DNA from: Rubrivivax sp.
Lineage (GTDB): Bacteria; Pseudomonadota; Gammaproteobacteria; Burkholderiales; Burkholderiaceae_C
Direction: 5' to 3'
Assembly: GCA_027484825.1 (NCBI GenBank)
Contig: JAIXSE010000014.1
Location: forward strand, 1 to 64,000
DNA: 64,000 nucleotides
Shown here: positions 39,511 through 57,166 of the stretch, piece after piece
Position numbering within the stretch: the first letter of the stretch is position 1
Layout of the letters: the number at the start of each line of letters is the position of its first letter
Notes under the pieces: generated by a model
What the model was told of the DNA's origin: nothing
Databases searched by the model: none
Seen by the model: the letters and a program-made list of their open reading frames with translations, nothing else
Position numbers and translations under genes: made by a program

Positions 39511-39648
39511 GAAGAAACAGGAACTCACCCGCGCCGGCACCGGCACAGGCCGGCGCACCAGCCGAGGGATGGGCGATTATGGCGTGCGCCCCTGGGGGCC
39601 TCCGAAGGGATTCCCTATCGGGGAACGCATGCCGGCGAGGTGGGGCAC

Positions 39649-39663
39649 TGTAGTGACACTACA
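39649..39663. promoter_or_regulatory. Operator-like palindrome TGTAG-N5-CTACA (HexR-type)
   Basis: TGTAGTGACACTACA is a perfect palindrome, extended by flanking C and G to 17 bp. It lies 139 bp upstream of the glk-hexR start codon. It resembles, from memory, the HexR consensus TGTARTWWWAYTACA. Confidence 0.6.
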
Positions 39664-39810
39664 GCCCCCAGACACAGGAAGCGCCGTGGCGGCTTCGCAG
39701 ACATCCTTTCATGATGGCGTCTGAAACAGGGTTCAAAGCGGGGTCTGGCCACAGTTTAATGAGATCGGGACCAGGGGCGCAGCCACGGGAGAACGCTCTT
39801 GTTGGAGGGC

Positions 39811-39825
39811 TGTAGTTTTGTTACC
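39811..39825. promoter_or_regulatory. Degenerate HexR-type site
   Basis: TGTAGTTTTGTTACC matches 13 of 15 positions of the remembered HexR consensus but only three of five bases of the right half-site used for the other copies. Confidence 0.3.
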
Positions 39826-39976
39826 TTTTTGGCCTGCTCGACTGGCAGCGTCGTCGCTCCACCCTGATGGCGACCCGCTCTGAAGCAGTCGCGGTCGCGC
39901 TGGCCAGCCAGTTGTTGCAATCCGGCGCACCCCCCGATGCGCCCCTGCTGAGCTCCTCCCACCGTCCATTACATGC

Positions 39977-39993
39977 ACTTTCTTGGTGAAAGT
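39977..39993. repeat. Inverted repeat ACTTTC-N5-GAAAGT
   Basis: A 6-bp perfect inverted repeat directly abutting the palindrome at 39994. It may be a second regulator's site. Confidence 0.4.
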
Positions 39994-40008
39994 TGTAGTC
40001 GAGCTACA
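39994..40008. promoter_or_regulatory. Operator-like palindrome TGTAG-N5-CTACA (HexR-type)
   Basis: TGTAGTCGAGCTACA has both half-sites perfect. It lies 258 bp before the receptor start and about 480 bp before glk-hexR. Confidence 0.6.
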
Positions 40009-40265
40009 TCCCTAATCTTCTCGTTCACCGCCGTGGGGGGCTCAAACAACGATAAATCAATCACTTACGGGTGATTTCCGGCGTCTAAAAAGGCAGATTT
40101 TTGGACTGTACGTCGTTCAAGGGTTTGCGCTGACTTGGTTGCGGATCTAGTTTTAGTACAAAATTTCCTCAAGGTTTGTTGGGTTCAGTGTCCCTGCCGC
40201 GGGAAACCAAAGCTGTACGGTGATCAGGCGGGGGCCGACGTCAGACGATAAGAGGAGACAAAGAC

Positions 40266-43055
40266 ATGACCACTTCGCACGCCAAGCGCGAGCATTTCCG
40301 AATTCGCCCCATCGCAGCGGGATGCATGCTGCTGGGGCTTCTGGCCGCCGGTGCCGCCCAAGCGCAACAGGCCCCCGCGGCCGAAGGCGACAAGTCGGCC
40401 GACCGCACGCTGGACACCGTCACGGTGACCGGCATCCGCCGCGGCATTGAAGCGGCCATCTCCGTCAAGAAGAATTCCGACTCGATCGTCGAAGCCATCT
40501 CGGCCGAAGACATCGGCAAGCTGCCGGACGTCTCGATTGCGGAATCCATCGCCCGGCTGCCGGGCCTGTCCGCTCAGCGCGTGGCTGGCCGTGCGCAGGT
40601 CATCAGCGTTCGGGGCCTGTCGCCCGACTTCGCCACCACGCTGCTCAATGGCCGCGAACTGGTGAGCACCGGCGACAACCGCAGCGTCGAATTCGACCAG
40701 TACCCGTCGGAGCTGCTCAGCGGCGTGACCATCTACAAGACGCCCGATGCCGGCCTGGTGGGCCAGGGCCTGTCCGGCACCATCGACATGCTGACGGTGC
40801 GTCCGCTGGACTTCAGCAACCGCGTCGTGTCCCTCAATGCTCGCGGCAGCCGCAACTCGCTGGGCAAGGCGGCTGGCGAAAGCGCCACCGGCAACCGCTT
40901 CAGCGCCAGCTACATCGACCAGTTTGCCAACCGGACCATCGGCGTCTCCATCGGCTTTGCCCATCAGGAGACGCCGCAGCAGGAAAACCAGGTCGGCCTG
41001 TACGAACCCTGGGAAGCCACCAACCGCAGCGACCTGGCGGCGGGCACCTTCAACACCGGCGGCATCAAGGCGCTGCGCCGCACCGGCCGCACCGAGCGCA
41101 ATGGCGTGATGGCCTCGGTGGAATTCCGTCCGTCCAAGAACTGGACCAGCGTGGTCGATGGCTTCTGGACCAAGTCCAAGCAGGAAGACACCGCCAACCA
41201 GTACGAGATGAGCCTGACGTGGAATGGCAATGGCAACTGCGCCCCGGCCACGCCTTGCACGACCTGGAGCAATCCGACCGTCAACAGCAACAACACGCTG
41301 ACCAGCGGCACCTTGTCCTATGCCTATCCGCTGATCCGCGGCATCTACAACAAGCGCGACGACAAGATCATCGCCGGCGGCTGGAACAACAAGCTCAAGT
41401 TCGACAACGGCGCCTCGCTGATGGCCGACCTGAACTACTCCAAGGCCACCCGTGACGAGCTGAGCCTGGAGAACAACACCCAGCTCAGCCGCGCCGTGGC
41501 CGTGCCGTACGACACCGTGCAACTGGCCTATCGCACCGGCAATTTCTCGCAGATCGTCCCGACGCTGGACTACTCCGATCCGACCAAGCTGTTCCTGACC
41601 AACACCATCTACGGCTCGGGCTACGGCAAGGTGCCCAGCGTCAAGGACGAGCTGACCGGCTTCAAGCTGGTGGGCAACCTGCCGGCCCCGACCGCGCTGG
41701 ACGGATGGTTCTCCGACTTCGACATCGGCTTCAACTACGCCGACCGTTCGAAGAAGAAGCGCCAGCCGGAAGGCGGCACCACCCTCAAGGGAGCGGACAC
41801 CGCCATTGCCAGCGATCTCCAATACAGCCCGGTGGATCTCGGCTTTGCAGGTCTGGGCATGATTCCCGCGTGGAACGTGCCGGGCGCCATTGCCCGCTAC
41901 ATGGACTTCAACCCCACCGACAACCAGCCGTGGCTGGTCTACAAGGCCTGGGACGTGTCCGAGAAGACCACCACCGTCTTCTTCAAGGGCAACATCGACT
42001 CCACCACCTTCGGCCTGCCGATGCGCGGCAACATCGGCCTGCAGATGGTCAATGTGAAGCAGGAATCCTCGTCCTTCTACTGGGACGGCACCAGCGGCGG
42101 CCGCAAGCCGACGTCGTCTGGCAAGACGGTCACCGACTTCCTGCCGGCGCTGAACCTGGCCTGGTCGCTGGGCAACGAGCAGACGCTGCGCCTGGGTCTG
42201 GCCAAGCAGATGGCCCGCCCGAAGGTGGATCAGCTGCGCTCGTCGCTGGACTTCGGCGTGGACAACGCCACCGGCAAGCCCGGCGCCAGCGGCGGCAACT
42301 CCAAGCTGGATCCGTGGCGTGCGAATGCGCTGGACCTGTCCTATGAGAAGTACTTCGGCTCCAAGGCCTATGTGTCGGCGGCCGGCTACTACAAGGACCT
42401 GCGCAGCTACATCTACACCCAGTCCAACGGCCAGTACGACTTCTCGCAATTCCTGACGGGCTACACCCCGCCGAGCACCTGCGGCAATGGCACCCAGCAA
42501 TGCCCGCCGGTGGTCCCGACCGGCACCTACACCGCCCCCTACAACGGCAAGGGCGGCAAGCTGCAGGGCGTGGAGCTGACCGCATCGCTGCCGCTGAATC
42601 TGTTGAGCAGCTCGCTCAACGGCTTCGGCATCATCGCCAGCGCCAGCTTCAACCACAGCAACATCCAGGTGAAGGATCCGGAAAGCGCCAGCAGCGTGGG
42701 CAATGGCTTCATCACCTTGCCGGGGCTGTCCAAGCAGGTCTACAACCTGACGGCCTACTACGAGCGTGACGGCTTCGAGTTCCGCATCAGCCAGCGTCGT
42801 CGCTCCGACTTCATCGGCGAGATCGGCAACTTCAACGGGGCGCGCACGCTGCGCTACGTGGTGGGTGAGAGCGTGGTGGACGCGCAGATCGGCTACACCT
42901 TCAATGAAGGGCCGCTCAAGGGCTTGGGCCTGCTGGCCCAGGTCAACAACCTGACCGACGAAGCCTATCGCACCTACGCCGGCAGCAAGGACCGCCCGCT
43001 GGAATACATCAAGTGGGGCCGCACCTACCTGCTGGGCGCCAACTACAAGTTCTGA
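40266..43055 (+). CDS. TonB-dependent receptor (oligosaccharide-type)
   Basis: A 929-aa outer-membrane active transporter. A signal peptide (1-33, ending AGAAQA) is followed by a TonB-box-like DTVTVTGIRRGIE, a plug domain (about 60-180, with LPDVSIAESIARLPGLSAQR and VISVRGLSPDF) and a 22-strand barrel ending in Phe (LLGANYKF). The sequence is of the TonB-Xanth-Caul subfamily, which often imports complex carbohydrates. Position between glk-hexR and the mal/glg operons suggests maltodextrin uptake. It ends at a strong terminator, so it is probably monocistronic. Confidence 0.92.
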   Translation: MTTSHAKREHFRIRPIAAGCMLLGLLAAGAAQAQQAPAAEGDKSADRTLDTVTVTGIRRGIEAAISVKKNSDSIVEAISAEDIGKLPDVSIAESIARLPGLSAQRVAGRAQVISVRGLSPDFATTLLNGRELVSTGDNRSVEFDQYPSELLSGVTIYKTPDAGLVGQGLSGTIDMLTVRPLDFSNRVVSLNARGSRNSLGKAAGESATGNRFSASYIDQFANRTIGVSIGFAHQETPQQENQVGLYEPWEATNRSDLAAGTFNTGGIKALRRTGRTERNGVMASVEFRPSKNWTSVVDGFWTKSKQEDTANQYEMSLTWNGNGNCAPATPCTTWSNPTVNSNNTLTSGTLSYAYPLIRGIYNKRDDKIIAGGWNNKLKFDNGASLMADLNYSKATRDELSLENNTQLSRAVAVPYDTVQLAYRTGNFSQIVPTLDYSDPTKLFLTNTIYGSGYGKVPSVKDELTGFKLVGNLPAPTALDGWFSDFDIGFNYADRSKKKRQPEGGTTLKGADTAIASDLQYSPVDLGFAGLGMIPAWNVPGAIARYMDFNPTDNQPWLVYKAWDVSEKTTTVFFKGNIDSTTFGLPMRGNIGLQMVNVKQESSSFYWDGTSGGRKPTSSGKTVTDFLPALNLAWSLGNEQTLRLGLAKQMARPKVDQLRSSLDFGVDNATGKPGASGGNSKLDPWRANALDLSYEKYFGSKAYVSAAGYYKDLRSYIYTQSNGQYDFSQFLTGYTPPSTCGNGTQQCPPVVPTGTYTAPYNGKGGKLQGVELTASLPLNLLSSSLNGFGIIASASFNHSNIQVKDPESASSVGNGFITLPGLSKQVYNLTAYYERDGFEFRISQRRRSDFIGEIGNFNGARTLRYVVGESVVDAQIGYTFNEGPLKGLGLLAQVNNLTDEAYRTYAGSKDRPLEYIKWGRTYLLGANYKF

Positions 43056-43102
43056 GCGGTGCCGGGGGTCCGCGCCTCCCGGCGCGGGCAAGCACCATCA
43101 AC

Positions 43103-43137
43103 AGCCTCGGGCCGAAGGGTCCGAGGCTTTTTTTTTT
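43103..43137 (+). terminator. Rho-independent terminator after the TonB receptor
   Basis: AGCCTCGGGCC pairs with GGTCCGAGGCT (one G-T pair) and is followed by ten T residues. Confidence 0.93.
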
Positions 43138-43288
43138 CGCCTTTGAAAGCGATTGTTCGTGCAGTGGCATCCCGTGGCTGGGAGATGGCCTTAAGACGGC
43201 GTGGTCAGGAAACAGAAGGACACCGGTGGTTGCGGCTCCCGGACGTTTCCTGCCTAGACTCACAGCCCATCGAACAAGGAGGCCGAGG

Positions 43289-45472
43289 ATGGCGCGAAGC
43301 TCAAGAATGGATCAACCGGGGGTCCCGTCACGGTTGGGGCAGGCCATGCTGCTGACGGTGGCCTGTCTGCTGGCCACGGCACTGTCGGTGCATGAGGCGC
43401 AGGCCGCCACGCTGCGCGCAGTGGCCAACAACAATTACGTCAGCGCCACGGCCACCGGCACCTCTTTCCTGACGGCCACTGCGACCGTCGCCAGCACCTG
43501 GGAGCAGTTCCAGGTCGTCAACAATGCCAATGGCACGATTTCGCTGAAGGCCACGATCAGCGGCAACTATGTGGCGGCGGATACCGGCCTGTCGGCGCCG
43601 GACACCAGCAAGCTGATTGCCAACCGCGGCAGCATTGCCGGCTGGGAGCAGTTCACCGTGGTGCCGCAGTCCAATGGGACCGTGGCCTTGCGGTCCATGG
43701 CCAATGGCCTGTATGTCTCGGCCGACCTGAACCTGGGCGGCGTGCTGGTGGCCAACCGCAGCTCGGTGGCCGCGTGGGAGCAGTTCGTCATCAGCGACCT
43801 GCCCTCGCCAGCCACGCCACCGGACTTCGGTCCCAATGTGCGCGTGGTCAATCCGAACACGCCCAATCTGCAGGGCCTGATCAACGACATCTACAACGCC
43901 CAGCAGCCCAATCACTTCGGCAATCGTCGTGACGCCATCCTGCTGACGCCCGGCATCTACAACAACCTTCGCATTCCCGTTGGTTTCTACACCCAGGTGC
44001 TGGGTCTGGGCAGCCATCCGGATCAGGTGCAGGTGATTGGCGACCTGCGCTCCAATGCCTATCTGGACGGCGACAACGCCACCCAGAACTTCTGGCGCGG
44101 GGCCGAGAACTTCTCGGTCACGCCCACGCTCGGCATCGGCAACAACACCATGCAATGGGCGGTGTCCCAGGCCATTCCGTTCCGCCGCATGCATGTGCGC
44201 GGCAACATCAAGCTGAATCAGAACAGTGGCTGGTCCAGCGGCGGCTGGTTCTCGGACGTGCTGGTGGACGGGCAGGTCAATTCCGGTAGCCAGCAGCAAT
44301 GGATCTCCCGCAACAGCCAGTGGGGTAGCTGGGTCGGGTCCAACTGGAACATGGTGTTTGTGGGCGTGCCCACGGCACCGGCCGGTGAGTTCCCGACGGC
44401 GGGGCAGCGCTATACGAAGATTGCGCAGACGCCGGTGATCCGTGAGAAGCCGTATCTCTTCATTGACAGCGACGGCAGCTACGCCGTGCGGGTGCCCTCG
44501 CTGCGCACCAACACCAGCGGCATCTCGTGGGCCAATGGCGGCATCACGGCGGGACGCACCCTGCCGATCAGCCAGTTCTACATCGCCAAGCCAAGCGATT
44601 CGGCCGCGACGCTCAATGCGCAGCTCGCCAGCGGCAAGCACCTGCTGTTCACGCCCGGCGTGTACGTGCTGACGCAGACGCTGCGGGTGAACAATCCCAA
44701 TACGGTGGTGCTGGGCATCGGCTTCCCGACGCTGCGCTCGGACAATGGCCAGCCGCTGATCCAGACGGCGGACGTGGATGGCTTGACGCTGTCGGGTCTG
44801 TTCCTGGATGCAGGTGCGGTGGAATCCGGGGTGCTGGTCGAGATCGGCCCCAATGGAGCGGCGGCCAATCACGCGGCCAATCCGATCGCTCTGCATGACC
44901 TCTTCTTCCGCGTGGGCGGTGCTGCCGCCGGGCGGGTGAAGATTGCGCTGAGCGTCAACAGCAACAACACCATCGTGGACCACACCTGGATCTGGCGTGC
45001 GGATCATGGCGCCGGTGTGGGCTGGGCCAGCAATCCGTCGGAGAACGGCCTGTGGGTGAATGGCAATGACGTCACCATGTATGGCCTGTTCGTGGAGCAC
45101 TTCCAGAAGCATCAGGTGGTGTGGAACGGCAATGGCGGACGGGTCTACTTCTATCAGTCCGAGATCCCCTACGACCCGCCCAGCCAGTCCGCCTGGAACA
45201 GCCCGACGGGCCGTGGCTATGCCGCCTACAAGGTGGCCGACTGGGTGAGCAGCCATGAGGCCTGGGGCCTGGGTGTCTACAGCGTGTTCACTAACGGCAA
45301 TATCTGGCTGGACCGCGCCATCGAAACGCCGGTGACGGGCAACGTGCGCTTCCACAACATGATCTCGGTGTGCCTGGGCAACAACGGCGGCATCGTGCAT
45401 GTGATCAACAACACCGGCGCGCAGACGGGCTGCAATGCCTCCTACACGCCGACCGTCACCAACTTTCCCTGA
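43289..45472 (+). CDS. Secreted beta-trefoil plus beta-helix protein
   Basis: A 727-aa exported protein. A signal peptide (about 1-40: basic start, AMLLTVACLLATALS, then EAQAA) precedes three fascin-like trefoil repeats (about 41-170; each with NNYVSA/GNYVAA/GLYVSA and WEQF), a fold that binds sugars or other ligands. The rest (about 180-727) is Asn/Gly-rich and looks like a right-handed parallel beta-helix of the pectate-lyase/GH55-like kind (RDAILLTPGIYNNLRIP, GVYVLTQTLRVNNPNTVVLGIGFPTL by region). AAGGAGG upstream supports ATG 43289. No catalytic residues can be named; a polysaccharide-active role is inferred from fold and context. Confidence 0.75.
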   Translation: MARSSRMDQPGVPSRLGQAMLLTVACLLATALSVHEAQAATLRAVANNNYVSATATGTSFLTATATVASTWEQFQVVNNANGTISLKATISGNYVAADTGLSAPDTSKLIANRGSIAGWEQFTVVPQSNGTVALRSMANGLYVSADLNLGGVLVANRSSVAAWEQFVISDLPSPATPPDFGPNVRVVNPNTPNLQGLINDIYNAQQPNHFGNRRDAILLTPGIYNNLRIPVGFYTQVLGLGSHPDQVQVIGDLRSNAYLDGDNATQNFWRGAENFSVTPTLGIGNNTMQWAVSQAIPFRRMHVRGNIKLNQNSGWSSGGWFSDVLVDGQVNSGSQQQWISRNSQWGSWVGSNWNMVFVGVPTAPAGEFPTAGQRYTKIAQTPVIREKPYLFIDSDGSYAVRVPSLRTNTSGISWANGGITAGRTLPISQFYIAKPSDSAATLNAQLASGKHLLFTPGVYVLTQTLRVNNPNTVVLGIGFPTLRSDNGQPLIQTADVDGLTLSGLFLDAGAVESGVLVEIGPNGAAANHAANPIALHDLFFRVGGAAAGRVKIALSVNSNNTIVDHTWIWRADHGAGVGWASNPSENGLWVNGNDVTMYGLFVEHFQKHQVVWNGNGGRVYFYQSEIPYDPPSQSAWNSPTGRGYAAYKVADWVSSHEAWGLGVYSVFTNGNIWLDRAIETPVTGNVRFHNMISVCLGNNGGIVHVINNTGAQTGCNASYTPTVTNFP

Positions 45473-45581
45473 CGCGTCAAAGCGCCGCATCCGTCGGCGC
45501 TGATGGTCTCGCGCTGCATTCGGCGCTAAATGCGTCGCTGCACTCAGCGTTCAATGTGAGGCCGGGACCCGCGTGACGACT

Positions 45582-45614
45582 GCAAGAACCGCCGCGAGGC
45601 GGTTTTTGCTTTTG
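45582..45614 (+). terminator. Rho-independent terminator after the beta-helix gene
   Basis: GCAAGAACCGCC pairs with GGCGGTTTTTGC (one G-T pair), loop GCGA, followed by TTTT. Confidence 0.85.
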
Positions 45615-45667
45615 AGGCATCAGTGTGACGTTCGGGCGCGCCGGCAGCGGCCGCCGAGCGGGCGACG

Positions 45668-46396
45668 TCAGCCCAGCGCGTCAAGCCTCACACTCAACTG
45701 ACGGTATTGGCGGCGCAGCCAGCCCTGCGCCTCGGCTGTTGCCAGCAGCGTGTTGACCGTCTGCCGGGACAGATGCGCACTGCGCGCCACATCCAGCTGG
45801 GTGGCCGTCACTGTCCGCCAGGCCGGATCGGCGCTCGTGGTGCCGCGTTCACGCACCAACTGGCGCAAGGCCATTCGCAGACGCTGCTGCGCAGAGTCGT
45901 GACGGGCCGCGCCCAGCAATCCCAGGTTGCCCTCGAAACGGCGAGCGAATTCCAGCATCAACGCCCGGGCAAAAACCGGGCAGTCGTCCATCAACAGACG
46001 ATAGGCCGGTTCGGTGATCAGCCAGACACGACTCTCCAGCAGGGCAGCGGCTTCATAGCGCGCAGGCCGCTGCGTGACAAAGGCCGATAAGCCGAACAGC
46101 CGCGGGTACCGCATGCGTTCCAAGGTCGAGGTGTCACCGCCTTCGGAGATGAACCGCGCCTCGATCTCTCCATCGGCCACCAGATAGAAGGCCTGCGGGA
46201 TCTGACCTTCGACAAACAGCACCTGACCGATGGCCAAGGCTCTGCATGGCACCAGAGCGTGAAGTCGATGCAGGAGCGCTGCCGGGATTTCCACTGGGGG
46301 CAGGGCGGCTTGAAGCGATGTCTGCAGATCCGGGCTAAGCCCCGGTGCGGTGGCGGACGATGAGCTGGAAGGAGCGGAGCGGCTGCGGCTGGGCAT
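45668..46396 (-). CDS. Crp/Fnr-family transcriptional regulator
   Basis: A 242-aa regulator: cyclic-nucleotide-binding-like domain (about 30-145; ALAIGQVLFVEGQIPQAFYLVADGEIEARF) and a C-terminal winged helix (about 165-235; TATQLDVARSAHLSRQTVNTLLATAEAQGWL). There is no Fnr-type cysteine cluster. ATG 46396 is preferred; an upstream frame extension to 46516 would run into the divergent neighbour. The regulator is divergent from the DUF2332 gene across about 85 bp. Its role in this locus is unknown. Confidence 0.88.
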   Translation of the reverse strand: MPSRSRSAPSSSSSATAPGLSPDLQTSLQAALPPVEIPAALLHRLHALVPCRALAIGQVLFVEGQIPQAFYLVADGEIEARFISEGGDTSTLERMRYPRLFGLSAFVTQRPARYEAAALLESRVWLITEPAYRLLMDDCPVFARALMLEFARRFEGNLGLLGAARHDSAQQRLRMALRQLVRERGTTSADPAWRTVTATQLDVARSAHLSRQTVNTLLATAEAQGWLRRQYRQLSVRLDALG

Positions 46397-46481
46397 GCGA
46401 CATTGTCGGGTAGCCGACCATTGCAGCGCCGGCTGCGCGGTCCAATCACTCCCAATCAGGAGCTTTTGAGGCGGATGCGAG

Positions 46482-47618
46482 ATGACCATCGACGACCCCA
46501 CCGTGCTGAACCGCATGTCCCGGCGTTTCCGGAATTTCTCCGAGCAGGACGGGCAGGACGACCCCCTCTACGCGGCGCTCGCCCGTCACATCGCGGACGA
46601 ACCGCAGCTGTGTGGCCTGCTCGCCGAAGCGCCGCCAGGCCAGCAGTTGCCGGTGCTGCTGCTGGCTGCGCTGCATGACGTCATCCTCGACGACACGGCG
46701 GCGCGCACCCCGCTGCACGACTATTACCCGACGGTCGGTGGCCATCGCCAACCGGATGACGCCCTGCCGCACGCACTGCGGACCTTCGTGGCGATGCATC
46801 GCAGCCGCCTGCTGCAGACGCTGCGCACCCGTGCCACCCAGACCAATGAGATTGGCCGCTGCGGCGTGCTGCGCGTGGCGCTGCAGGCCTTGATGGAGCG
46901 CTTGAACCTGGGCCGTCCGGCACCCCATCCCATTGCGCTGTTTGATTTTGGTTGCAGCGCTGGCTTGAACCTCCTCGTTCAGGACTACGGCTACGACGAC
47001 GGCTGGGATCTCCAGCCTGCTGGGGAGGCGAGCGCCCCCTTGATTCGCGGACGCTGGCGCCGGCCCCCGCCTGCATCATTGCAAGGGCCCCGCCGATGGC
47101 AGGTGTGCGACGCGATAGGGGTGGACCCGGCGCCCGTCGACGTGACGGATGCGCTGGCCACCCGCTGGCTGCGGGCCTGTGTCTGGCCGCATGACGAGGA
47201 ACGGGGAGGGCGTCTGCGACAAGCGCTGGCATTGGCGGCTGCGCGGCCACAACGCCTGGTCGCGGCCGATGACGGATTGCAGGTGCTCGACCGGTGGCTG
47301 GCCCGTCTGCCGGACGGGGTGCAGCCGGTCATGGTGAACACCTGGGTGCTGGCCTATCTCGACGCGCAGCAGCGCGCGCATCTGAATCAGACGCTGGCTG
47401 GATGGATCGGTGCACGCGGCCTGGCCTGGATCAGCGGGGAGGCCGGCAAGTTCTCCCCTGTGGCCACCTTGCCGCCCACGGGCGGCCCCGAGCCCGCGGA
47501 CACCACCACGCTGTGGACCCTCCAGTGGCGCGACGCCGACCGCGTCCTGACCGAAGCCTTGGCCTGGTCACACGCGCACGGAAAATGGATGGACTGGCTG
47601 CCGAACGACCCCCTATAA
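46482..47618 (+). CDS. DUF2332 family protein
   Basis: A 378-aa protein of the DUF2332 family, function unknown. PHPIALFDFGCSAGLNLLVQDYGYDD at about 146-171 (by region) resembles a nucleotide-binding loop of SAM-dependent enzymes, and the C-terminal VMVNTWVLAYLDAQQRAHL is a family landmark. No membrane segment. It is divergent from the Crp/Fnr gene and ends just before the AT-rich hipBA promoter region. Confidence 0.8.
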   Translation: MTIDDPTVLNRMSRRFRNFSEQDGQDDPLYAALARHIADEPQLCGLLAEAPPGQQLPVLLLAALHDVILDDTAARTPLHDYYPTVGGHRQPDDALPHALRTFVAMHRSRLLQTLRTRATQTNEIGRCGVLRVALQALMERLNLGRPAPHPIALFDFGCSAGLNLLVQDYGYDDGWDLQPAGEASAPLIRGRWRRPPPASLQGPRRWQVCDAIGVDPAPVDVTDALATRWLRACVWPHDEERGGRLRQALALAAARPQRLVAADDGLQVLDRWLARLPDGVQPVMVNTWVLAYLDAQQRAHLNQTLAGWIGARGLAWISGEAGKFSPVATLPPTGGPEPADTTTLWTLQWRDADRVLTEALAWSHAHGKWMDWLPNDPL

Positions 47619-47641
47619 AAACCCATGAAACAGCGGTTTCA

Positions 47642-47657
47642 CCAACATATATATTGG
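47642..47657. promoter_or_regulatory. Candidate HipB-type operator 1
   Basis: CCAACATATATATTGG, a 16-bp palindrome with one mismatch to CCAAC-N6-GTTGG, located 85 bp before the antitoxin-like start. Confidence 0.55.
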
Positions 47658-47696
47658 TTTTTCTGGATCGTTCCCGTGCTTCGGATCTCCAAAAAA

Positions 47697-47712
47697 CCAA
47701 CATATAAGTTGG
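47697..47712. promoter_or_regulatory. Candidate HipB-type operator 2
   Basis: CCAACATATAAGTTGG, perfect in both 5-bp half-sites, 55 bp centre to centre from operator 1. TTGGAC at its right edge and TAATGT at 47730 could form the promoter it covers (spacing 15 bp, short). Confidence 0.55.
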
Positions 47713-47741
47713 ACAAAACCGCTCTGTGGTAATGTTTATGG

Positions 47742-48128
47742 ATGCCAAAACGCTCCCCTGCCGTTGACCTGATGCCTGCCGAGGCCTCCGCCCACCTGCG
47801 CCTGCTGGGGGAGAACCTGGCCATCGCCCGCAAGCGGCGCAGGGAGACCCTCGGCACCTGGGCCTCCCGCATCGGGGTGTCGGAGCCCACGCTGTCCCGC
47901 ATGGAACGCGGGGACCCGACGGTCTCGATGGCGGTCTACGCCACCGCGCTCTGGATGATGGGGCGCAGCCGAGCCCTGGCCGATGCCGCTGATCCGCAAC
48001 TGGACCTGGGCGCGCTGGAGAGCGATGTGCGCGCGGCGCAGGCGCGGTCCATCCGTCGCCAACGCAAGGCGGTGCCCACGGCAGCGGCGCCGGCTCGCTC
48101 GGCGACGCCTCGAAGGAGCGCCCGATGA
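47742..48128 (+). CDS. XRE-family HTH protein, HipB-like antitoxin
   Basis: A 128-aa protein with a helix-turn-helix at about 20-75 (LGENLAIARKRRRETLGTWASRIGVSEPTLSRMERGDPTVSM by region) and a basic, Ala/Arg-rich C-terminal tail. Such proteins bind palindromic operators upstream of hipBA and neutralise HipA. The stop overlaps the hipA ATG by 4 bp. ATG 47772 is an alternative start; a promoter at 47709-47735 would leave almost no leader for ATG 47742. Confidence 0.85.
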   Translation: MPKRSPAVDLMPAEASAHLRLLGENLAIARKRRRETLGTWASRIGVSEPTLSRMERGDPTVSMAVYATALWMMGRSRALADAADPQLDLGALESDVRAAQARSIRRQRKAVPTAAAPARSATPRRSAR

Positions 48129-49375: not shown

Positions 49376-49430
49376 AGTCGCGATGAGAGCCAGCGCGAAG
49401 GCCGCCGCGAAGGCTGCCGTGAAGGCCGGC
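49361..49430 (+). repeat. Short tandem repeats at the end of hipA
   Basis: An 11-bp unit ATGAAGTCGCG occurs twice (49361-49382), spanning the hipA stop, followed by three 12-bp units GCGAAGGCCGCC, GCGAAGGCTGCC and GTGAAGGCCGGC (49395-49430). An 18-codon frame (49383-49439) reads Ala/Lys-rich; I do not call it a gene. Confidence 0.7.
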
Positions 49431-49469
49431 CGCGCCTGACGCACATAGCGCGTCGACGCTGGCTCGCGG

Positions 49470-52016
49470 TCAGCGACCCTGCACGTCCTGCCGGATCCAG
49501 GCCTGACCCGACAACGCAGGGACACGCAGCGTCACGCGACCGTTGTCAGGGACGCGGACTTCCTCCCCCGCCATCGGCATCAGCCTCAGCCTCAGCCCAC
49601 GCAATGAGGGCGGCAGTTCCAGCGCCACAGTCTTGGCCTCATCCGCATTGTTCAGGGCCACCAGCGCCGCCTGCCCGCCATCCCTGCGCAGCAGCACGAT
49701 GAGATGCTCATCCAGCAGCAGCGGCGCCTCCAGGCTGCCGCGCCGCAGCACCGGCCATTGCTGCCGCATCGCCACCAACTGCGCCACCTGCGCGCGGAGC
49801 CCCTCGTCCGGATGTCCGCCCAGGTCCGGCCAGGGATAGGGCGCGCGGTTGTAGGGATCGTCGCCGCCGGTCACGCCGACTTCATCGCCGTAGTAGATCG
49901 TCGGAGCCCCGGGCCAGGTCATCTGGAACCAGATCGCCAGCAGCAGCCGACGCTTGGCCAGCGCCATCGCCTCCGGATTCGCGCCCTCTTCACCGCCGAG
50001 GTGATGCAGCGCGCGGGGCTGATCATGCGTCGACAACAGGTTCATCGAGGCCGACAGGGCCTGCGCCGGATACGCCTCCCGCAACAGCTCCAGGTTCTGA
50101 TAGAGCCGGTCCGCGCGACCACCGGCGGCATAGTCCAGCACCGTGTTGCGGAAGATGTAGTTCATCGTCCCGTCGAAGCTGTCGCCCAGGAAGAATTTGC
50201 TGGCATCGAACCAGGTCTCGGCGATGGTCAGCGCGCCGGGCCGGTGGCCCTTGACCGCGCGCCGCCAGCCGCGCCAGAAGTCGTCCGGCACATACGGCGC
50301 CACATCCATGCGCCATCCGGCCGCGCCCTGGTCCAGCCAGAACTTCGTCACCGAATCGGGTGCCTCGAAGGCGAAGCGGCGGAAGTCCTTGCTGGCCTTG
50401 TTGAGCTCCGGCAGGTCCTTCACATCCATCCAGCCCTTGAACTGGCGGTCCGCATCGGTCTGGGTCGTGTCGAAGCTGAACCAGCCGGCATACGGGGAGG
50501 CTGTATTGATGCGACCACCATCAAACGCGCCGCCCGGCGGATAGTTGCCGAAGCGATTGAAGTAGGGCGAGTCGGCGCCGACATGGTTCAGTGACGTGTC
50601 CGGAATCACGCGGATGCCGCGCCGGGCCGCCTCGACCGTGAGCCGCTTGAAATCTGCATTGGTGCCGAAGGCCGGGTCAATGCGCTTGTAGTCGGCCGTG
50701 TCGTACTTGTGGTTGCTGGCGGCCTTGAACAGCGGCGTCAGGTACAGCGCATTGGCGCCCAGCGCGCGGATGTCGTCCAGCTTGTCGATCAGCCCGGCCA
50801 GGTCACCGCCGTAGAAGTCGTTGTTGTAGACCGCATCGGAGCCGTCGCCGCTGCCCGGCTTGTAGGGGCGGTCCATCCAGTTCGTGTGGAACTCGATGTC
50901 GTGGTCCTGGTAGCGATCGCGACCGGGCTGGGGATCGTTGGTCCGGTCCCCGTTGCGGAAGCGCTCGGGAAAGACGTAGTAGTAGACGGCATCGCGGGCC
51001 CAGTCGGGCACGGTGAAGTCGGGCGCGTGGACGGTCTGCCGATAGCGGCGGATGCGCCGCTTCTCGGTCGGCAGTTCGTCGATCAGGCCCACCCCCATCG
51101 ACCCCTTTTCGCGGGTCCAGTAGATGCTGTCCTTGTTGTTGCCGTAGACGTAGCGCCGGCCGTCGATCGTGATGACGAAGTAGTAGCCATACACCGCCGG
51201 AGCGCCGAAGCGGTGTCGCACCGTCCAGCGCTCACGTCCCTGCGCATCGGGCGCGCCGGGCATGCGGTGCAGCGGCGCGCGGGCCTGCTCGGTGTAGTCG
51301 AGCACGTCCTGATGGCCCTCCAGCCGGCGCTTCTCCACCACCAGCTCCATCCGCGTCACCCCGGGCAGGGCCGTCACTTCGAACTCGACCCAGCTGCCCG
51401 ACGGCAGGGCGCCGAAGGGTCGTTTGAAGGCGGTGCTGCGGGAATCAAAGCGCACACTCAGTGCGACCGGGTCGGTCACGGCGCTTGCATTGGGATCGGG
51501 CGCGGGATAGGCGGAGCAGGCCGCCGGAGCGGGCGGGCAGGGGAGGAGGGTCAGGGACGGCTTCCCCTGTGTCCATCGCAGCTCCAGGCGGTGCAGACCG
51601 CCTTCAAAACGCTGCTGCACGGCGGCACCCTTGAGCGTCATGGCGCGCGGGTCACCGCCGAAGTCCGCGTCGGGGGACCAGTCTTCGTCCCCGATCTTGA
51701 AGGACTGCTCACCCTTGAGCGAGGTGATGAGCTCATGATGGTCGCAGGCCCAATACAGGCGCTGGGCATCCGGCGCGGACCAGTTGTTCAGCGTGCCGCG
51801 CAGATAGAGGTCGCGGCCGGAGAGTGGGGGTGGCGTGCAGGACGCAGCCTGCGCAGATGCAGATGCCGGTGCCGGTGCCGGTGCTGATGCGGCCCCCGGC
51901 GCTGACGCTAACGGTGATGTCAGCGTCGGTGCTGGCGCCGTCAAGGTCGCCGTCGCCGCATGGCCCCACCCGGCACAGAGCATCGCAAGCCCGCAAAGCC
52001 ACGGCGCCCGCTCCAT
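49470..52016 (-). CDS. Exported GH13 alpha-amylase/neopullulanase-like enzyme
   Basis: An 848-aa GH13 enzyme expected to cut alpha-1,4 links in maltodextrins or pullulan. A signal peptide (1-20, WLCGLAMLCAGWGHA) is followed by an Ala/Pro/Ser-rich linker, a carbohydrate-binding-like module (LYLRGTLNNWSAPDAQRL), a second beta module (about 180-310) and the catalytic barrel. GH13 regions are visible: DTSLNHVG, GWRMDVAPY (nucleophile Asp), IAETW (acid Glu) and STHDQPR. ATG 52016 lies 11 bp after malG and gives a proper signal peptide. It is the last gene of malK-E-F-G-amy. Confidence 0.92.
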   Translation of the reverse strand: MERAPWLCGLAMLCAGWGHAATATLTAPAPTLTSPLASAPGAASAPAPAPASASAQAASCTPPPLSGRDLYLRGTLNNWSAPDAQRLYWACDHHELITSLKGEQSFKIGDEDWSPDADFGGDPRAMTLKGAAVQQRFEGGLHRLELRWTQGKPSLTLLPCPPAPAACSAYPAPDPNASAVTDPVALSVRFDSRSTAFKRPFGALPSGSWVEFEVTALPGVTRMELVVEKRRLEGHQDVLDYTEQARAPLHRMPGAPDAQGRERWTVRHRFGAPAVYGYYFVITIDGRRYVYGNNKDSIYWTREKGSMGVGLIDELPTEKRRIRRYRQTVHAPDFTVPDWARDAVYYYVFPERFRNGDRTNDPQPGRDRYQDHDIEFHTNWMDRPYKPGSGDGSDAVYNNDFYGGDLAGLIDKLDDIRALGANALYLTPLFKAASNHKYDTADYKRIDPAFGTNADFKRLTVEAARRGIRVIPDTSLNHVGADSPYFNRFGNYPPGGAFDGGRINTASPYAGWFSFDTTQTDADRQFKGWMDVKDLPELNKASKDFRRFAFEAPDSVTKFWLDQGAAGWRMDVAPYVPDDFWRGWRRAVKGHRPGALTIAETWFDASKFFLGDSFDGTMNYIFRNTVLDYAAGGRADRLYQNLELLREAYPAQALSASMNLLSTHDQPRALHHLGGEEGANPEAMALAKRRLLLAIWFQMTWPGAPTIYYGDEVGVTGGDDPYNRAPYPWPDLGGHPDEGLRAQVAQLVAMRQQWPVLRRGSLEAPLLLDEHLIVLLRRDGGQAALVALNNADEAKTVALELPPSLRGLRLRLMPMAGEEVRVPDNGRVTLRVPALSGQAWIRQDVQGR

Positions 52017-52027
52017 CCGGCGCGCCC

Positions 52028-52918
<891 letters not shown>

Positions 52919-52934
52919 CAGTGGGCTCCCTTGC

Positions 52935-54587
52935 TCATGATTGTTTCCTCATCAGCCGCAGGTTGAGCAGCGACATCGCCGCCACCAGGAAGAAGATCAG
53001 CGTCGAGATGGCTGCGGCCAATCCGAAGTCCGAGCCGGAATCGCGGAAGGCGATGCGGTAGGTGTAGCTCACCAGGATGTCGGTCTGGCCGGCGGGAATC
53101 TTGCTGGACAGATAGTCCGGTCGCCCGTCCGTCAGCAAGGCGATCACGACGAAGTTGTTGAAGTTGAAGGCAAAGGCCGCCACCAGCAGGGGCGACAGCG
53201 GCTTGATGATCAGCGGCGCGGTGATCTTGAAGAAATTGGTCAGCGGCCCCGCGCCGGCAATGGCCGAGGCTTCATACAGGTCGGCCGGAATGGCCTTGAG
53301 CAGGCCGGCCGCCAGAATCATGATGTAGGGATAACCCAGCCACACGTTGACGATCAGCAGCATGGTCTTGGCCAGCAACGGGTCGGCAAACCAGGCGGGT
53401 TTCACGCCGAACAGCGCATCCAAAATGGCGTTGATCTCGCCGAAGTTCTGGTTGAACAGCCCCTTGAACACCAGGATGCTGATGAAGCCCGGCACCGCAT
53501 AAGGCAGGAACAGCAGCGTGCGGTAGGTGCCGCGGAATCGCAGGTCTTCCCAGTTCAACAGCACCGCCAGCATCATGCCGATGGCGGTGGCAAACACCAC
53601 GGTGAGCAGCGAGAACACCACCGTCCAGGTGAAGATGGAGAGGAAGGGGCCGCGGAAGTCCGCGTCCAGCACCATGCGGGCGTAGTTCTGCCAGCCCACC
53701 ATCACCTTGTAGCCGGGCTGCAGATGTTCCCCCGCCTGGTTCTCGTAATAGCCGGTGCGGCCGTTGGGCGCAAAGCGCTGACCATCCACTGTGCGGATCA
53801 GGCTGCCGTCCGCCTGCTCCTGGAAGTGGCGGCGGATGGGACCGAACTCGCGCAGGCCGAGGTAGTGCAGGGTGTCGGCTTCGGCGGACTCGCCCGGCAG
53901 ATGCAGGCGCAGTTGCGACAAGGCGTTGCGGTGCTGCACCAGGTCCCGCAGTGACAGTGCCGGTCCCAGGTCACCGTCGGCCGCCTGGGCGGCCGGCAGC
54001 AGCGTGACGTCCACCGGCTTGTCGCCCCGCAGCGCCAGCGGCGGCGTCACCCATTCCAGCGCGCCGGTGTCCGGGTGCCGCAGCACCAGGCGGAAGTCGC
54101 GGCCCTGCGCATGCACCGCGTAGTCCCGCACCCGGTCCGCCACTGCTTCATGCTGGTCCAGCAGATAGTCGCGCACCCGCTCCTGGCTCAGCAGGTGGGC
54201 TGAGGAATAGTTGGTGAAGCCGATCTGCGTCGTGTAGAGCAGCGGAAAGGCGATGAACACCAGCATGCCGGTGACGCCGGGGAAGAGATACCGCCAGGCA
54301 AAGCCGTTCTGGTTCAGGTAGATGCCAAACCCGGCGCCAAAGAGGGCCAGTGTGCCCAGTGCCCACCAGGTCTGCCCGCCGGCATACAGGGTGTAGACCA
54401 GATACAGCGCGGCCAGGGCCACCGCCACCACCACCGGCCAGTAGAGCCATCCGCCCACTCGCGCGAGCAGGCTGGGCGGCTGCACGCTGTAGGCATGGGC
54501 CAGCGGCGAGTCCGTCAGCGAGGCGCGCGGACCGGTGTCCAGGGGCGACGCCGGCAGCGGCGTCGGGGGAGCAGTGGTGGCATTCAT
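52935..54587 (-). CDS. malF: Maltose/maltodextrin ABC transporter permease MalF
   Basis: A 550-aa permease of MalF type: two-three N-terminal membrane segments, a large periplasmic P2 loop (about 135-310) as in E. coli MalF, then the core with the EAA loop ([25 protein letters not shown] by region about 430-455). The P2 loop normally touches MalE, which fits a dedicated maltodextrin system. ATG overlaps the malE stop by 4 bp. Confidence 0.95.
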
Positions 54588-55834
54588 GGCTTGAGCAGCA
54601 TGCGGCCCGAAGCACCGTCCAGCGCGTCCTTGGGGCTTTGCAGTCCGTTGGTGATGGCTTCCAGGGCCGCATCCATCGCGGTCCAGAAGCGTCCCACTTC
54701 AGGGATGTTGGGAATGGGGGCGCCCACCCGGGCGTTTTCCATCGTGGCCCGGATCAGCGGATTGACCGACAGCTCGGCATAGAAGGCCTTGTTGGCCGGC
54801 ACGCCGATCGGCACATCGGCATCCAGCACCTTCAGCGACTCGGGGCGCATCAGATGCCATTCGATAAACTCACGGGCCAGGTCCTTGTGCCGCGACGGGG
54901 CGGCGATCATGCAGCCCAGCACGCCCACGAAGGAGCGCGACGGTTGGCCCGGCACGGCCGAGGGAATCGGTGCCACGCCGAAGTCGATGCCCGCCTTGCG
55001 GGCGTTGTCCCAGGCCCAGGGGCCGGAGATCATCATGGCGATCTCCCCCCGCGCAAAGCCGGACTCCATCTCCGCATAACGCGCGCCCTTGGGCATGACA
55101 CCGTCCTTGATCAGGCGGTCCAGCACCTGTGCGCCGGCCAGGGCGCCGTCATTGTTGACCTGCACAAGCGCCGGGTCGAAGTCCCCCTGCGCATTGCGGC
55201 CGAAGATCACACCGCCGGCGCCGGCCAGAATCGGCCAGCTGAAAAAGCTCTTGTTGTAGTCCCACAGAATGGCGCTTTTGCCGCGCGCCTTGAGCGTGCG
55301 GTCCAGCGCCACCACCTGCTCGAAGGTGGCCGGCGGCTGCTTCACCAGTGCCTTGTTGTAGATCAGCCCGCTGGCTTCGATGGCGATCGGGTAGCCCCAG
55401 AAGCGGCCCTTGTAGCGGAAGGCCTCCCAGGTGGTCGGCTCCAGCTCCTCATAGAGCTGGCGGCGCGGCTGCACCGGGGTGATCAGGCCCGCCTTGGCCC
55501 ATTCGCCGACGCGGTCATGCGGCCAGCAGAAGATGTCGGGGCCCTTGCCGGCGCCGGTGGCTTGCTGGAACTTGTCCGGCGCATCGACCGGATGCTCCAC
55601 CACGACCTTCACGCCGGAGGCCTGCTCGAAGGCATTGCCCACCTTCTGGAGGCCGTTGTAGGCCTTGTCGCCGTTGATCCAGACCAGCAGCCGGGGAGTG
55701 GTGTCGGCGTGGGCCATCGAGGGCGTGCCCATCATGCCCAGCAATGCCGCCATCGGCAGCAGCAAAGCCGTGGCCCGGGCGCCGCGCCAGCGACCCGCTC
55801 TCATACGACTTGCCCTCATGCGATCCGCCCTCAT
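54584..55834 (-). CDS. malE: Maltose/maltodextrin-binding protein MalE
   Basis: A 416-aa periplasmic solute-binding protein. A signal peptide (ALLLPMAALLGMMGTPSMAHA) follows a basic N-terminus; LLVWINGDKAYNGLQKVGNAFE and FSWPILAGAGGVIF resemble MalE. The 5' end is odd: three 15-bp units each start with an in-frame ATG (55834, 55819, 55804), reading MRADR-MRASR-MRAGR. ATG 55834 overlaps the malK stop (ATGA) and is taken as the start, but any of the three could serve. Confidence 0.93.
   Translation of the reverse strand: MRADRMRASRMRAGRWRGARATALLLPMAALLGMMGTPSMAHADTTPRLLVWINGDKAYNGLQKVGNAFEQASGVKVVVEHPVDAPDKFQQATGAGKGPDIFCWPHDRVGEWAKAGLITPVQPRRQLYEELEPTTWEAFRYKGRFWGYPIAIEASGLIYNKALVKQPPATFEQVVALDRTLKARGKSAILWDYNKSFFSWPILAGAGGVIFGRNAQGDFDPALVQVNNDGALAGAQVLDRLIKDGVMPKGARYAEMESGFARGEIAMMISGPWAWDNARKAGIDFGVAPIPSAVPGQPSRSFVGVLGCMIAAPSRHKDLAREFIEWHLMRPESLKVLDADVPIGVPANKAFYAELSVNPLIRATMENARVGAPIPNIPEVGRFWTAMDAALEAITNGLQSPKDALDGASGRMLLKP
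55790..55834 (-). repeat. Triplicated 15-bp start region of malE
   Basis: ATGAGGGCGGATCGC, ATGAGGGCAAGTCGT and ATGAGAGCGGGTCGC lie in tandem and in frame; each carries an ATG. Confidence 0.9.
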
Positions 55835-56931
55835 GCCGGCACTCCGAGGCGCCGAAAGGCCAGGCCTTGGGCATCGAACAGATAACAGGCGTCCGGCGGC
55901 AGGCACAGGCTGAGTGCGTCTCCCGAGCGCACCCGGGTGCGACCGTCAAACTCGCAGGTCAGCGCCTCTTCCATGCCGGGGTAGTCGCAATAGGCATGGG
56001 TGGTGCCGCCCAGCGATTCCACAAAGGTCACGCGGGTCTGCAGCAGGTTGCTGTCGCCGCCCACCTGGAAATGCTCCGGCCGGATGCCGAGGGTGACCTT
56101 GTCGCCCACACGGGCCCGCGCGGCCTCGACCTGCGCCCGGATCAGGGCGCCGCCCGCCAGCTTCGCCACGGCGTGCGCCTCGGAGGCTTCCACCACCTCC
56201 GCCGCCATGAAGTTCATCCGCGGACTGCCGATGAAACCGGCCACAAACAGATTGTCCGGATGCTCGTAGAGCTCGATGGGCGTGCCCACCTGCTCGATCC
56301 GGCCGGCCGACAGCACGACGATCCGGTCCGCCAGCGTCATGGCCTCGACCTGGTCATGGGTCACATAGACCATGGTGGTCTTGAGGTCCTCATGCAGCTT
56401 GGCAAACTCATAACGCATGCGCACCCGCAGGGCGGCGTCGAGATTGGACAGCGGTTCGTCGAAGAGGAAGACTTCGGGCTTGCGCACGATGGCGCGGCCG
56501 ATGGCCACCCGCTGGCGCTGACCGCCGGAGAGGTCCTTGGGCTTGCGGTCCAGCAGATGCTCGATGTGCAGGATGCGGGCGGCATAGCGCACGGCACGGT
56601 CGATCTCGTCCTTGGGCACCTTGGCCAGCTTGAGCCCGAACGCCATGTTCTCGTAGAGATTCATGTGCGGGTAGAGGGCGTAGCTCTGGAAGACCATGGC
56701 AATGCCGCGCTCGGCCGGCGGCACCTCATTGACCAGACGCCCGCCGATGCGCATCTCCCCACCGGTGATGTCTTCCAGACCTGCGATGGTGCGCAGCAGG
56801 GTGGACTTGCCGCAGCCCGACGGGCCCACGAACACCATGAATTCGCCGTCCCGGATTTCCAGGTCGATGCCATGCAGGATCTTGGTCTCGCCATAGGCCT
56901 TGACCACGGCTTGCAGCTTCACGTCCGCCAC
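55831..56931 (-). CDS. malK: Maltodextrin ABC transporter ATPase MalK (UgpC-type)
   Basis: A 366-aa ABC ATPase. Walker A GPSGCGKST (36-44), Q loop (FQSYALYPH), signature LSGGQ (134-138), Walker B VFLFDEP (154-160) and H loop are intact; a C-terminal regulatory OB-fold region (about 240-366, LGIRPEHFQVGG) follows as in MalK/UgpC. It is the first gene of malK-malE-malF-malG-amylase, with a good promoter about 110 bp upstream. Confidence 0.95.
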   Translation of the reverse strand: MADVKLQAVVKAYGETKILHGIDLEIRDGEFMVFVGPSGCGKSTLLRTIAGLEDITGGEMRIGGRLVNEVPPAERGIAMVFQSYALYPHMNLYENMAFGLKLAKVPKDEIDRAVRYAARILHIEHLLDRKPKDLSGGQRQRVAIGRAIVRKPEVFLFDEPLSNLDAALRVRMRYEFAKLHEDLKTTMVYVTHDQVEAMTLADRIVVLSAGRIEQVGTPIELYEHPDNLFVAGFIGSPRMNFMAAEVVEASEAHAVAKLAGGALIRAQVEAARARVGDKVTLGIRPEHFQVGGDSNLLQTRVTFVESLGGTTHAYCDYPGMEEALTCEFDGRTRVRSGDALSLCLPPDACYLFDAQGLAFRRLGVPA

Positions 56932-57041
56932 TTGATACCTCCGCAGCGGCCCGCGTGGGCGGGAGGCTGCCTGTCTCGCTCGTTTAGATATGGATGTGAC
57001 GGCACGGCAGGACGGTCAGGCACCCTCCTGTGGCTGTCATT

Positions 57042-57056
57042 TGTAGAGAATATACA
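57042..57056. promoter_or_regulatory. Degenerate HexR-type site over the malK -10
   Basis: TGTAGAGAATATACA has nine of ten half-site bases right (ATACA in place of CTACA) but departs from the remembered consensus at three inner positions. It covers the malK -10 hexamer. Confidence 0.4.
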
Positions 57057-57077
57057 TGGCGCACTGCAGCGTCACAA
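57049..57077 (-). promoter_or_regulatory. Sigma70 promoter of the malK operon
   Basis: On the minus strand TTGTGA (57077-57072) and TATATT (57054-57049) are 17 bp apart, a close match to consensus, about 118 bp before the malK ATG. Confidence 0.65.
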
Positions 57078-57151
57078 CGCGGTAAACCGCATGTGTTCGC
57101 AGTCGAATCCATATGAATCAATCACTTGCCGAAGTGTTCGGGATAACCCGA

Positions 57152-57166
57152 TGTAGTCAAACTACA
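57152..57166. promoter_or_regulatory. Operator-like palindrome TGTAG-N5-CTACA (HexR-type)
   Basis: TGTAGTCAAACTACA has both half-sites perfect and matches the remembered HexR consensus closely. It lies 86 bp before the glgP start; a further ACTACAG follows at 57170. Confidence 0.65.

What the first reader, a model, noticed from the sequence alone, without database searches (positions are those of the whole stretch)
39649..57166. A TGTAG-N5-CTACA operator set marks the carbohydrate locus and may be the site of its Glk-HexR fusion
Three copies with both half-sites perfect (39649, 39994, 57152) and two degenerate copies (39811, 57042) fall only in the two large non-coding gaps flanking glk-hexR, the TonB receptor, malK and glgP; I noticed none in gaps elsewhere in the window. 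The form resembles the HexR consensus as I remember it from gammaproteobacteria. This would put maltodextrin uptake and glycogen enzymes under a glucokinase-fused HexR, wider than the usual Entner-Doudoroff regulon.
Basis: partly seen in the sequence, partly recalled or inferred. Interest (0 to 1): 0.7.

Follow-up and report, generated by a model that had tools for sequence, protein, structure and literature searches.

The report
Glucokinase-fused repressor's starch-uptake operator set
A short mirror-image DNA site, conserved mainly in bacteria that carry a glucokinase-fused regulator, marks this bacterium's starch and glycogen genes, while its central sugar-pathway genes carry a sister site beside a separate, related regulator.

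Summary
TGTAG-N5-CTACA occurs three times in the window, always between genes, and once more in the 5.66 Mb genome, before a tonB-like gene with exbB and exbD. The sites are conserved: 73 of 80 related glk-hexR loci have TGTAR-N5-YTACA (at most one mismatch) near the fusion start, reversed control 3 of 80. In 299 family genomes, two or more perfect sites occur in 37 of 49 with a close fusion, 3 of 19 with a distant one, 11 of 231 without. Half-sites and spacing match the footprinted 15-bp site of Pseudomonas RccR, a HexR-type RpiR protein. The likeliest binder is the fusion. Two corrections. First, this is not a widened Entner-Doudoroff regulon: zwf and edd carry a different conserved operator (TGTAAY-N3-GTTACC) and a stand-alone HexR follows zwf; the fusion's set is alpha-glucan uptake and breakdown. 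Second, KDPG is probably not its ligand: six of RccR's nine KDPG contacts are kept in 0 of 80 fusions. Against strict coupling: fusion-less G007 keeps the tonB site, and three of the lost residues were needed for DNA binding in RccR. No binding was tested.

The parts
37600..39558 (-). glk-hexR fusion: glucokinase domain, then RpiR-type HTH and SIS domains
   Evidence: Pfam Glucokinase 352.7 bits, HTH_6 70.6, SIS 55.1; start codon not verified
39649..39663 (.). perfect operator TGTAGTGACACTACA, glk-hexR side
   Evidence: island against G003, one spacer base differs
39811..39825. degenerate operator TGTAGTTTTGTTACC; its reverse complement GGTAACAAAACTACA resembles GGTAGCAAAACTACA, seen in 5 of the 24 loci printed
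39994..40008 (.). perfect operator TGTAGTCGAGCTACA, TonB-receptor side
40146..40160 (.). weak operator-like site (2 mismatches), unchanged between G000 and G003 within a longer conserved block
40266..43055 (+). TonB-dependent receptor (TIGR01782, TonB-Xanth-Caul), proposed alpha-glucan importer
   Evidence: substrate inferred
49470..52142 (-). alpha-amylase-family enzyme of the mal operon (frame start uncertain)
52028..52918 (-). malG-like permease
   Evidence: BPD_transp_1; named by position after malF
52935..54587 (-). malF permease
54584..55906 (-). malE binding protein
55831..56931 (-). malK ATPase
   Evidence: 505.8 bits, below that model's cut-off of 568
57042..57056 (.). operator TGTAGAGAATATACA (1 mismatch) overlapping a predicted malK -10 box (-35 starting 57077, -10 ending 57049, minus strand)
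   Evidence: identical in 12 of 12 Roseateles with a glgP hit; promoter scan, consensus match only
57152..57166 (.). perfect operator TGTAGTCAAACTACA between malK and glgP
57252..59756 (+). glgP alpha-glucan phosphorylase
59805..61862 (+). glgB branching enzyme
61706..63994 (+). glgX-like enzyme with CBM_48 and alpha-amylase domains (start uncertain); a 4-alpha-glucanotransferase follows just outside the window

Best explanation
The sites are the operators of the glucokinase-HexR fusion, one of two HexR-type RpiR paralogues in this Roseateles genome. A dimer of its HTH (recognition helix VSQPTVIRF) binds TGTAG-N5-CTACA and most probably represses: the site at 57042 covers the predicted -10 box of malK. 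The set covers its own gene, the TonB receptor, malK-malEFG-amylase, glgP-glgB-glgX, pullulanase and a tonB-like/exbB/exbD cluster, that is, import of alpha-glucans across both membranes and their breakdown to glucose and glucose-1-phosphate. The stand-alone HexR (helix VSKPTVVRF, KDPG pocket intact) keeps zwf and edd through TGTAAY-N3-GTTACC. The fusion has lost most KDPG contacts, so release from DNA is more likely triggered through the fused glucokinase domain (glucose or its phosphorylation state) or by another ligand of the altered SIS pocket. Shown: sites, conservation, co-occurrence, pocket and helix differences. Inferred: binding, repression, operon extent, ligand.
For: Sites near the fusion: 73 of 80 loci versus 3 of 80 for the reversed control. 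Exact TGTAR-N5-YTACA hits in those loci: 105 G-type on both sides, 18 mixed, 0 A-type. Co-occurrence in 299 genomes: two or more sites in 37 of 49 close, 3 of 19 distant, 11 of 231 without fusion; Fisher p 6e-26 close versus none, genomes not independent. Unlinked target: the tonB-like gene's site has at most one mismatch in 13 of 14 fusion-bearing Roseateles; in fusion-less G011 it has 4 of 10 half-site changes against 8.7% flank divergence from G000. Same pentamer half-sites and spacing as the RccR 15-bp site proved by SPR and footprint (PMC5489143 passages). Two HexR-like RpiR proteins in the genome at E 0.001. Helix VSQPTVIRF in 80 of 80 fusions, VSKPTVVRF in 21 of 21 stand-alones fetched. 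Pullulanase site with one mismatch in this genome and in 5 of 5 Roseateles where the gene was found, out of 11 stretches; two perfect sites between an amylase and a pullulanase gene in Undibacterium L068.
Against: No binding or expression data. G007, a Roseateles without the fusion, keeps TGTAGCCGTTCTACG at the tonB position. Outside Roseateles 5 of 26 genomes scanned have a G-type tonB site within one mismatch (all 5 among the 23 with a fusion); 3 have an A-type site there, one of them (G114) without a fusion; 12 further stretches have no G-type site. So A- and G-type sites may replace each other and one protein may bind both. Distant fusions mostly lack the site. Four close fusions have no perfect site. 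In RccR, alanine at S139, H148 or H164 abolished DNA binding (PMC10810197 passages), and all three are replaced in 80 of 80 fusions, so the fusion must compensate if it binds DNA. The cut between close and distant fusions was set after seeing the gap (63% versus 58%).
Confidence: 0.78

Rival explanations
1. The stand-alone HexR binds both operator classes; the fusion is mainly an enzyme, and sites persist because the starch genes persist.
For: The two helices are close; A-type and G-type sites swap at the tonB position; G007 keeps a G-type tonB site without the fusion; G007 and G011 lack glgP too, so linked sites go with their genes; residues needed for DNA binding in RccR are replaced in the fusions.
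Against: G011 has the stand-alone HexR and intact zwf and edd sites, yet its unlinked tonB site has decayed; the 231 genomes without the fusion show few sites; the fusion gene itself carries the site in most of the 80 loci.
Confidence: 0.14
2. An unrelated regulator of the starch genes (for example a LacI-type MalR or the Crp-like protein at 45668-46516) owns the palindrome and controls glk-hexR as a target.
For: Regulators of maltose genes are often LacI-type (recalled).
Against: Half-sites and spacing match a proved RpiR-family site; the Crp-like gene was found within the held flanks (up to 10 kb) of only 1 of 80 related loci; no LacI family among the proteins scanned, which are not every frame of the region.
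Confidence: 0.05
3. The fusion binds these sites and is a classical KDPG-responsive HexR.
For: R152 and S183 are kept in 80 of 80 and S185 in 49 of 80; a different ligand geometry is possible.
Against: S139, H148, H164, S188, K270 and R277 are kept in 0 of 80 (the last two depend on the alignment: two of 13 fusions align an R at 277). In RccR, R152A, K270A and R277A had undetectable and S183A, S185A, S188A weakened KDPG binding (PMC10810197 passages). Unfused neighbours L034 and L038 keep the pocket.
Confidence: 0.12

Closest known systems
RccR of Pseudomonas (RpiR family; PMC5489143 and PMC10810197, passages)
   Same: 15-bp site with TGTAGT/ACTACA half-sites; HTH plus SIS domains; best solved relative of the fusion's regulator half (8ju9 E 1.5e-58, 8k3b E 1.7e-58)
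   Different: RccR targets include aceE and glyoxylate-shunt genes and it binds KDPG; the fusion has glucokinase in front, starch-type targets and a changed pocket; no 28-bp sites of RccR type in the window
HexR of Gammaproteobacteria
   Same: Domains, palindrome type, site at its own gene, link with glk
   Different: HexR controls zwf, edd, eda and more (PMC5343134 passages); here a stand-alone paralogue stands at zwf, and zwf and edd carry an A-type operator
Bifunctional glucokinase/RpiR regulator NF010701 (PRK14101)
   Same: Same domain order, aligned over residues 20-612
   Different: 772 bits against a cut-off of 920; no regulon for it in the papers listed
ROK-family sugar-kinase-like repressors (Mlc, NagC; recalled)
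   Same: Would share the idea of a kinase-type domain as sugar sensor
   Different: Different families: here an E. coli-type Glk is fused to an RpiR protein

Membership tests
HexR | RpiR HTH_6 plus SIS architecture | tested here: met
HexR | NCBIfam HexR model NF008451 above its cut-off of 296 | tested here: not met
   fusion 226.8, stand-alone 255.9 bits; neither passes, so the cut-off does not discriminate here
HexR | Operators at zwf and edd | tested here: not met
   those promoters carry the A-type class, with no G-type site within one mismatch in the stretches scanned
HexR | KDPG-binding pocket | tested here: not met
   2 or 3 of 9 contacts kept in each of 80 fusions, by alignment to RccR
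RccR | 15-bp TGTAGT/ACTACA operator | tested here: met
   pentamers and spacing identical; the sixth base is T in 41 and C in 58 of 105 sites
RccR | Targets aceE, aceA, glcB, pckA | not tested
   the four perfect sites of the genome lie elsewhere; degenerate or 28-bp sites were not searched genome-wide for them
RccR | KDPG-dependent DNA binding | not testable with these tools
   sequence prediction is against it
Glk-RpiR bifunctional protein NF010701 | Glucokinase domain followed by RpiR regulator in one chain | tested here: met
Glk-RpiR bifunctional protein NF010701 | Curated cut-off of 920 bits | tested here: not met
   772 bits
Glk-RpiR bifunctional protein NF010701 | Glucokinase activity | not testable with these tools
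   NDFTAL in 80 of 85 rows and EGGH in 81 of 85, the rest largely mis-extracted or not fusions; motif roles recalled

The most novel reading that the evidence does not exclude
Fusion to glucokinase moved the sensor: after glk and hexR, neighbours in some relatives, became one chain, the SIS domain lost its KDPG site and the glucokinase domain became the sensor, so a metabolic enzyme directly gates a repressor of starch uptake, while a HexR paralogue kept the Entner-Doudoroff genes through an operator that differs mainly at one base per half-site.
Probability: 0.3. Interest if true: 0.8.

Novelty: new variant of a known kind. Interest (0 to 1): 0.62.

Why it matters
Two paralogous repressors with closely similar operators appear to split central sugar metabolism from polymer uptake. 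That gives a natural system for how operator specificity diverges, and a testable case of an enzyme domain taking over as sensor of a transcription factor. It also proposes a function for an annotated bifunctional protein for which the papers found here describe no regulon. The site predicts starch and glycogen regulons across Roseateles and its relatives.

Tried and rejected
Chance: rejected. A transposon repeat as the source: not supported for this locus; the spacers of the four perfect sites all differ, unlike the repeated copies in G174 and G307. A remnant of a second glucokinase in the window gap: by a loose criterion a second glk lies near the fusion in 77 of 80 loci, 65 divergent and 12 on the same strand, but no convincing remnant was found in the window gap (best tblastn E 0.02). 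A known small RNA at the tonB-like gene: no Rfam match at gathering scores. De novo palindromes upstream of 19 distant fusions and G182: only GC-rich words. My first tonB scan and alignment used minus-strand loci unturned; they are void and replaced. In one search one genome (G106) was scanned at a wrong offset because of a contig end; rescanned, no site. A pullulanase search across the genus failed on my wrong frame and was replaced by fetched stretches; 6 of those 11 gave no pullulanase hit. Motif counts contained mis-framed rows and were replaced; still holds a few. The tonB-like protein has no Pfam match at 1e-4; the name rests on its look and on exbB and exbD behind it. Structure prediction was not run.
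Full report
Observation. The pattern TGTAG-N5-CTACA has exactly three matches in the window, at 39649, 39994 and 57152, and none in 100 shuffles. With up to two mismatches there are 24 matches against a mean of 7; 57042 has one mismatch and 39811 two. In the whole assembly (5,663,909 bases, 36 contigs) there are four perfect copies; the fourth, C32:241695, lies between the end of another TonB receptor and a tonB-like gene followed by exbB and exbD (the tonB-like protein itself has no Pfam match). The reversed control has 11 copies, so the bare genome count is unremarkable; place and conservation carry the case.

Genes. 37603-39558 on the minus strand is glucokinase followed by HTH_6 and SIS. 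40266 is a TonB receptor of the TIGR01782 type. malK, malE, malF, a second permease and an alpha-amylase run leftward from 56931; glgP, glgB and a glgX-like gene run rightward from 57252; a 4-alpha-glucanotransferase, a cyclomaltodextrinase and a pullulanase follow outside the window. The nearest named relative found is Roseateles depolymerans.

Conservation. 80 loci encoding the fusion, in Roseateles, Pelomonas, Ideonella, Undibacterium and others, were fetched (the best 80 of 137). TGTAR-N5-YTACA occurs 123 times in them, its reverse 4 times; within -500 to +30 of the fusion start it occurs in 55 of 80 against 0 of 80. Allowing one mismatch within -700 to +60 it is 73 of 80 against 3 of 80. 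Of the 123 exact hits 105 are G-type on both sides, 18 mixed, none A-type on both. In the glk-hexR/TonB gap the two perfect sites stand as islands against G003 (one spacer base differs at 39649), and the weak sites 39811 and 40146 lie in longer conserved blocks. The malK/glgP gap holds TGTAGAGAATATACA and TGTAGT(C/G)AAACTACA 110 bases apart in 12 of 12 Roseateles with a glgP hit; 4 of the 16 have none, two of them (G006, G010) with the fusion. The left site covers a predicted malK -10 box (a consensus match only).

Targets elsewhere. The tonB-like gene has the site in 13 of 14 fusion-bearing Roseateles with at most one mismatch; the fourteenth, at a contig break, has two. The pullulanase promoter has TGTAGTTTTGCTAC(C/T), one mismatch, in this genome and in 5 of 5 Roseateles where the gene was found in the fetched stretch, out of 11 stretches. 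In Undibacterium (L068) two perfect sites lie between an amylase and a pullulanase gene.

Which protein. The genome holds two HexR-like RpiR proteins at E 0.001: the fusion and a stand-alone one directly behind zwf. In P. fluorescens, RccR binds TGTAGTAAAACTACA, shown by SPR and footprinting (PMC5489143, passages), so the site is of this family's kind. In 299 genomes of the family, two or more perfect sites occur in 37 of 49 with a fusion at least 63% identical, in 3 of 19 with a fusion at 43-58%, and in 11 of 231 without (counts copied by hand, genomes not independent). Because the sites near the fusion are lost with the locus, the unlinked tonB site is the better test: in G011, which lacks fusion and glgP, it reads TGCGGTTTGGCTGCG, 4 of 10 half-site bases changed against 31 of 356 flank bases (p 0.002 to 0.015 depending on the reference and test). 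Against this, G007, also without a fusion, keeps TGTAGCCGTTCTACG. Outside Roseateles, of 26 genomes scanned (23 with a fusion), 5 have a G-type tonB site within one mismatch, all with a fusion, and 3 an A-type site, one of these without the fusion; 12 further stretches gave no G-type site and one A-type near-site.

Division of labour. The zwf promoter carries GGTAACTTCGTTACA or, in two genomes, GGTAACTCCGTTACA in 14 of 14 Roseateles examined (2 of the 16 were not fetched), and the edd promoter TGTAATATGGTTACC in 16 of 16, including G007 and G011. None has a G-type site within one mismatch in the stretches scanned. The recognition helix reads VSQPTVIRF in 80 of 80 fusions and VSKPTVVRF in 21 of 21 stand-alone proteins fetched.

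Ligand. The closest solved structure to the regulator half is RccR; 8K3B is its KDPG complex, with contacts S139, H148, R152, H164, S183, S185, S188, K270 and R277 (PMC10810197, passages). In the 80 fusions S139, H148, H164, S188, K270 and R277 are kept in 0 of 80, R152 and S183 in 80 of 80, S185 in 49 of 80; that is 3 of 9 kept in 49 and 2 of 9 in 31. The C-terminal pair depends on the alignment: in the smaller one, 2 of 13 fusions align an R at 277. The stand-alone protein of this genome keeps 9 of 9; the other 20 keep the 7 that the fetched stretch covers, with T for S188 in three. Unfused, neighbouring glk and hexR (L034, L038) keep the pocket though they share the fusion's helix; a distant fusion (L032) has 4 of 9. 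This argues that pocket loss went with fusion. It rests on alignment, not on binding data. A result that cuts the other way: in RccR, alanine at S139, H148 or H164 abolished DNA binding, so the fusions, which lack all three, must hold their DNA-binding form in another way, or do not bind. I lowered the main confidence from 0.80 to 0.78 for this. The glucokinase motifs are largely kept, so that domain could act as enzyme, sensor or both.

Mechanism proposed. Without sugar the fusion sits on its operators and represses import and breakdown of alpha-glucans. When maltodextrins enter and are cut, glucose reaches the glucokinase domain, which releases the repressor; its product feeds the Entner-Doudoroff pathway, whose KDPG then releases the stand-alone HexR from zwf and edd. 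Binding, repression and ligand are inferred.

Literature. No paper held joins HexR with Roseateles or uses 'glk-hexR'; the listings (15 of 30 shown), seen as titles and abstract starts, show nothing on this regulon. PMC5343134 (passages) gives the usual HexR regulon. Leyn et al. 2011, the main comparative HexR paper (recalled as such), is not held, so its betaproteobacterial regulons were not seen, and RegPrecise was not consulted; part of this set may be listed there.

Noticed in passing
L034 and L038 (G056, G048): glk and a HexR-type gene stand side by side, unfused, with the fusion's recognition helix and an intact KDPG pocket: a likely pre-fusion arrangement.
   Followed up: partly
loci, beside the fusion: By a loose criterion 77 of 80 loci have a second glucokinase near the fusion, 65 divergent and 12 on the same strand; it is missing from R. 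depolymerans (L046) and from the window gap.
   Followed up: partly
window 37603-39558, residues 27-35: The glucokinase phosphate loop reads DIGSTFAR here and DIGGT(Y/F)AR in most fusions, where the E. coli-type Glk chain has DVGGTNAR.
   Followed up: no
G000:C14:8555-8569 (L198): TGTAATCTCCTTACA, the fifth TGTAR-N5-YTACA of the genome, recurs in at least 8 other Roseateles in the capped listing; its role is unknown.
   Followed up: no
G174, G307: Identical perfect copies of the pattern (TGTAGCAGAGCTACA four times; TGTAGCGCTGCTACA three times) in fusion-less genomes look like repeats rather than operators.
   Followed up: no
window 45668-46516: Crp-like regulator gene beside the locus; within the held flanks it was found in only one of the 80 loci, L046.
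   Followed up: no
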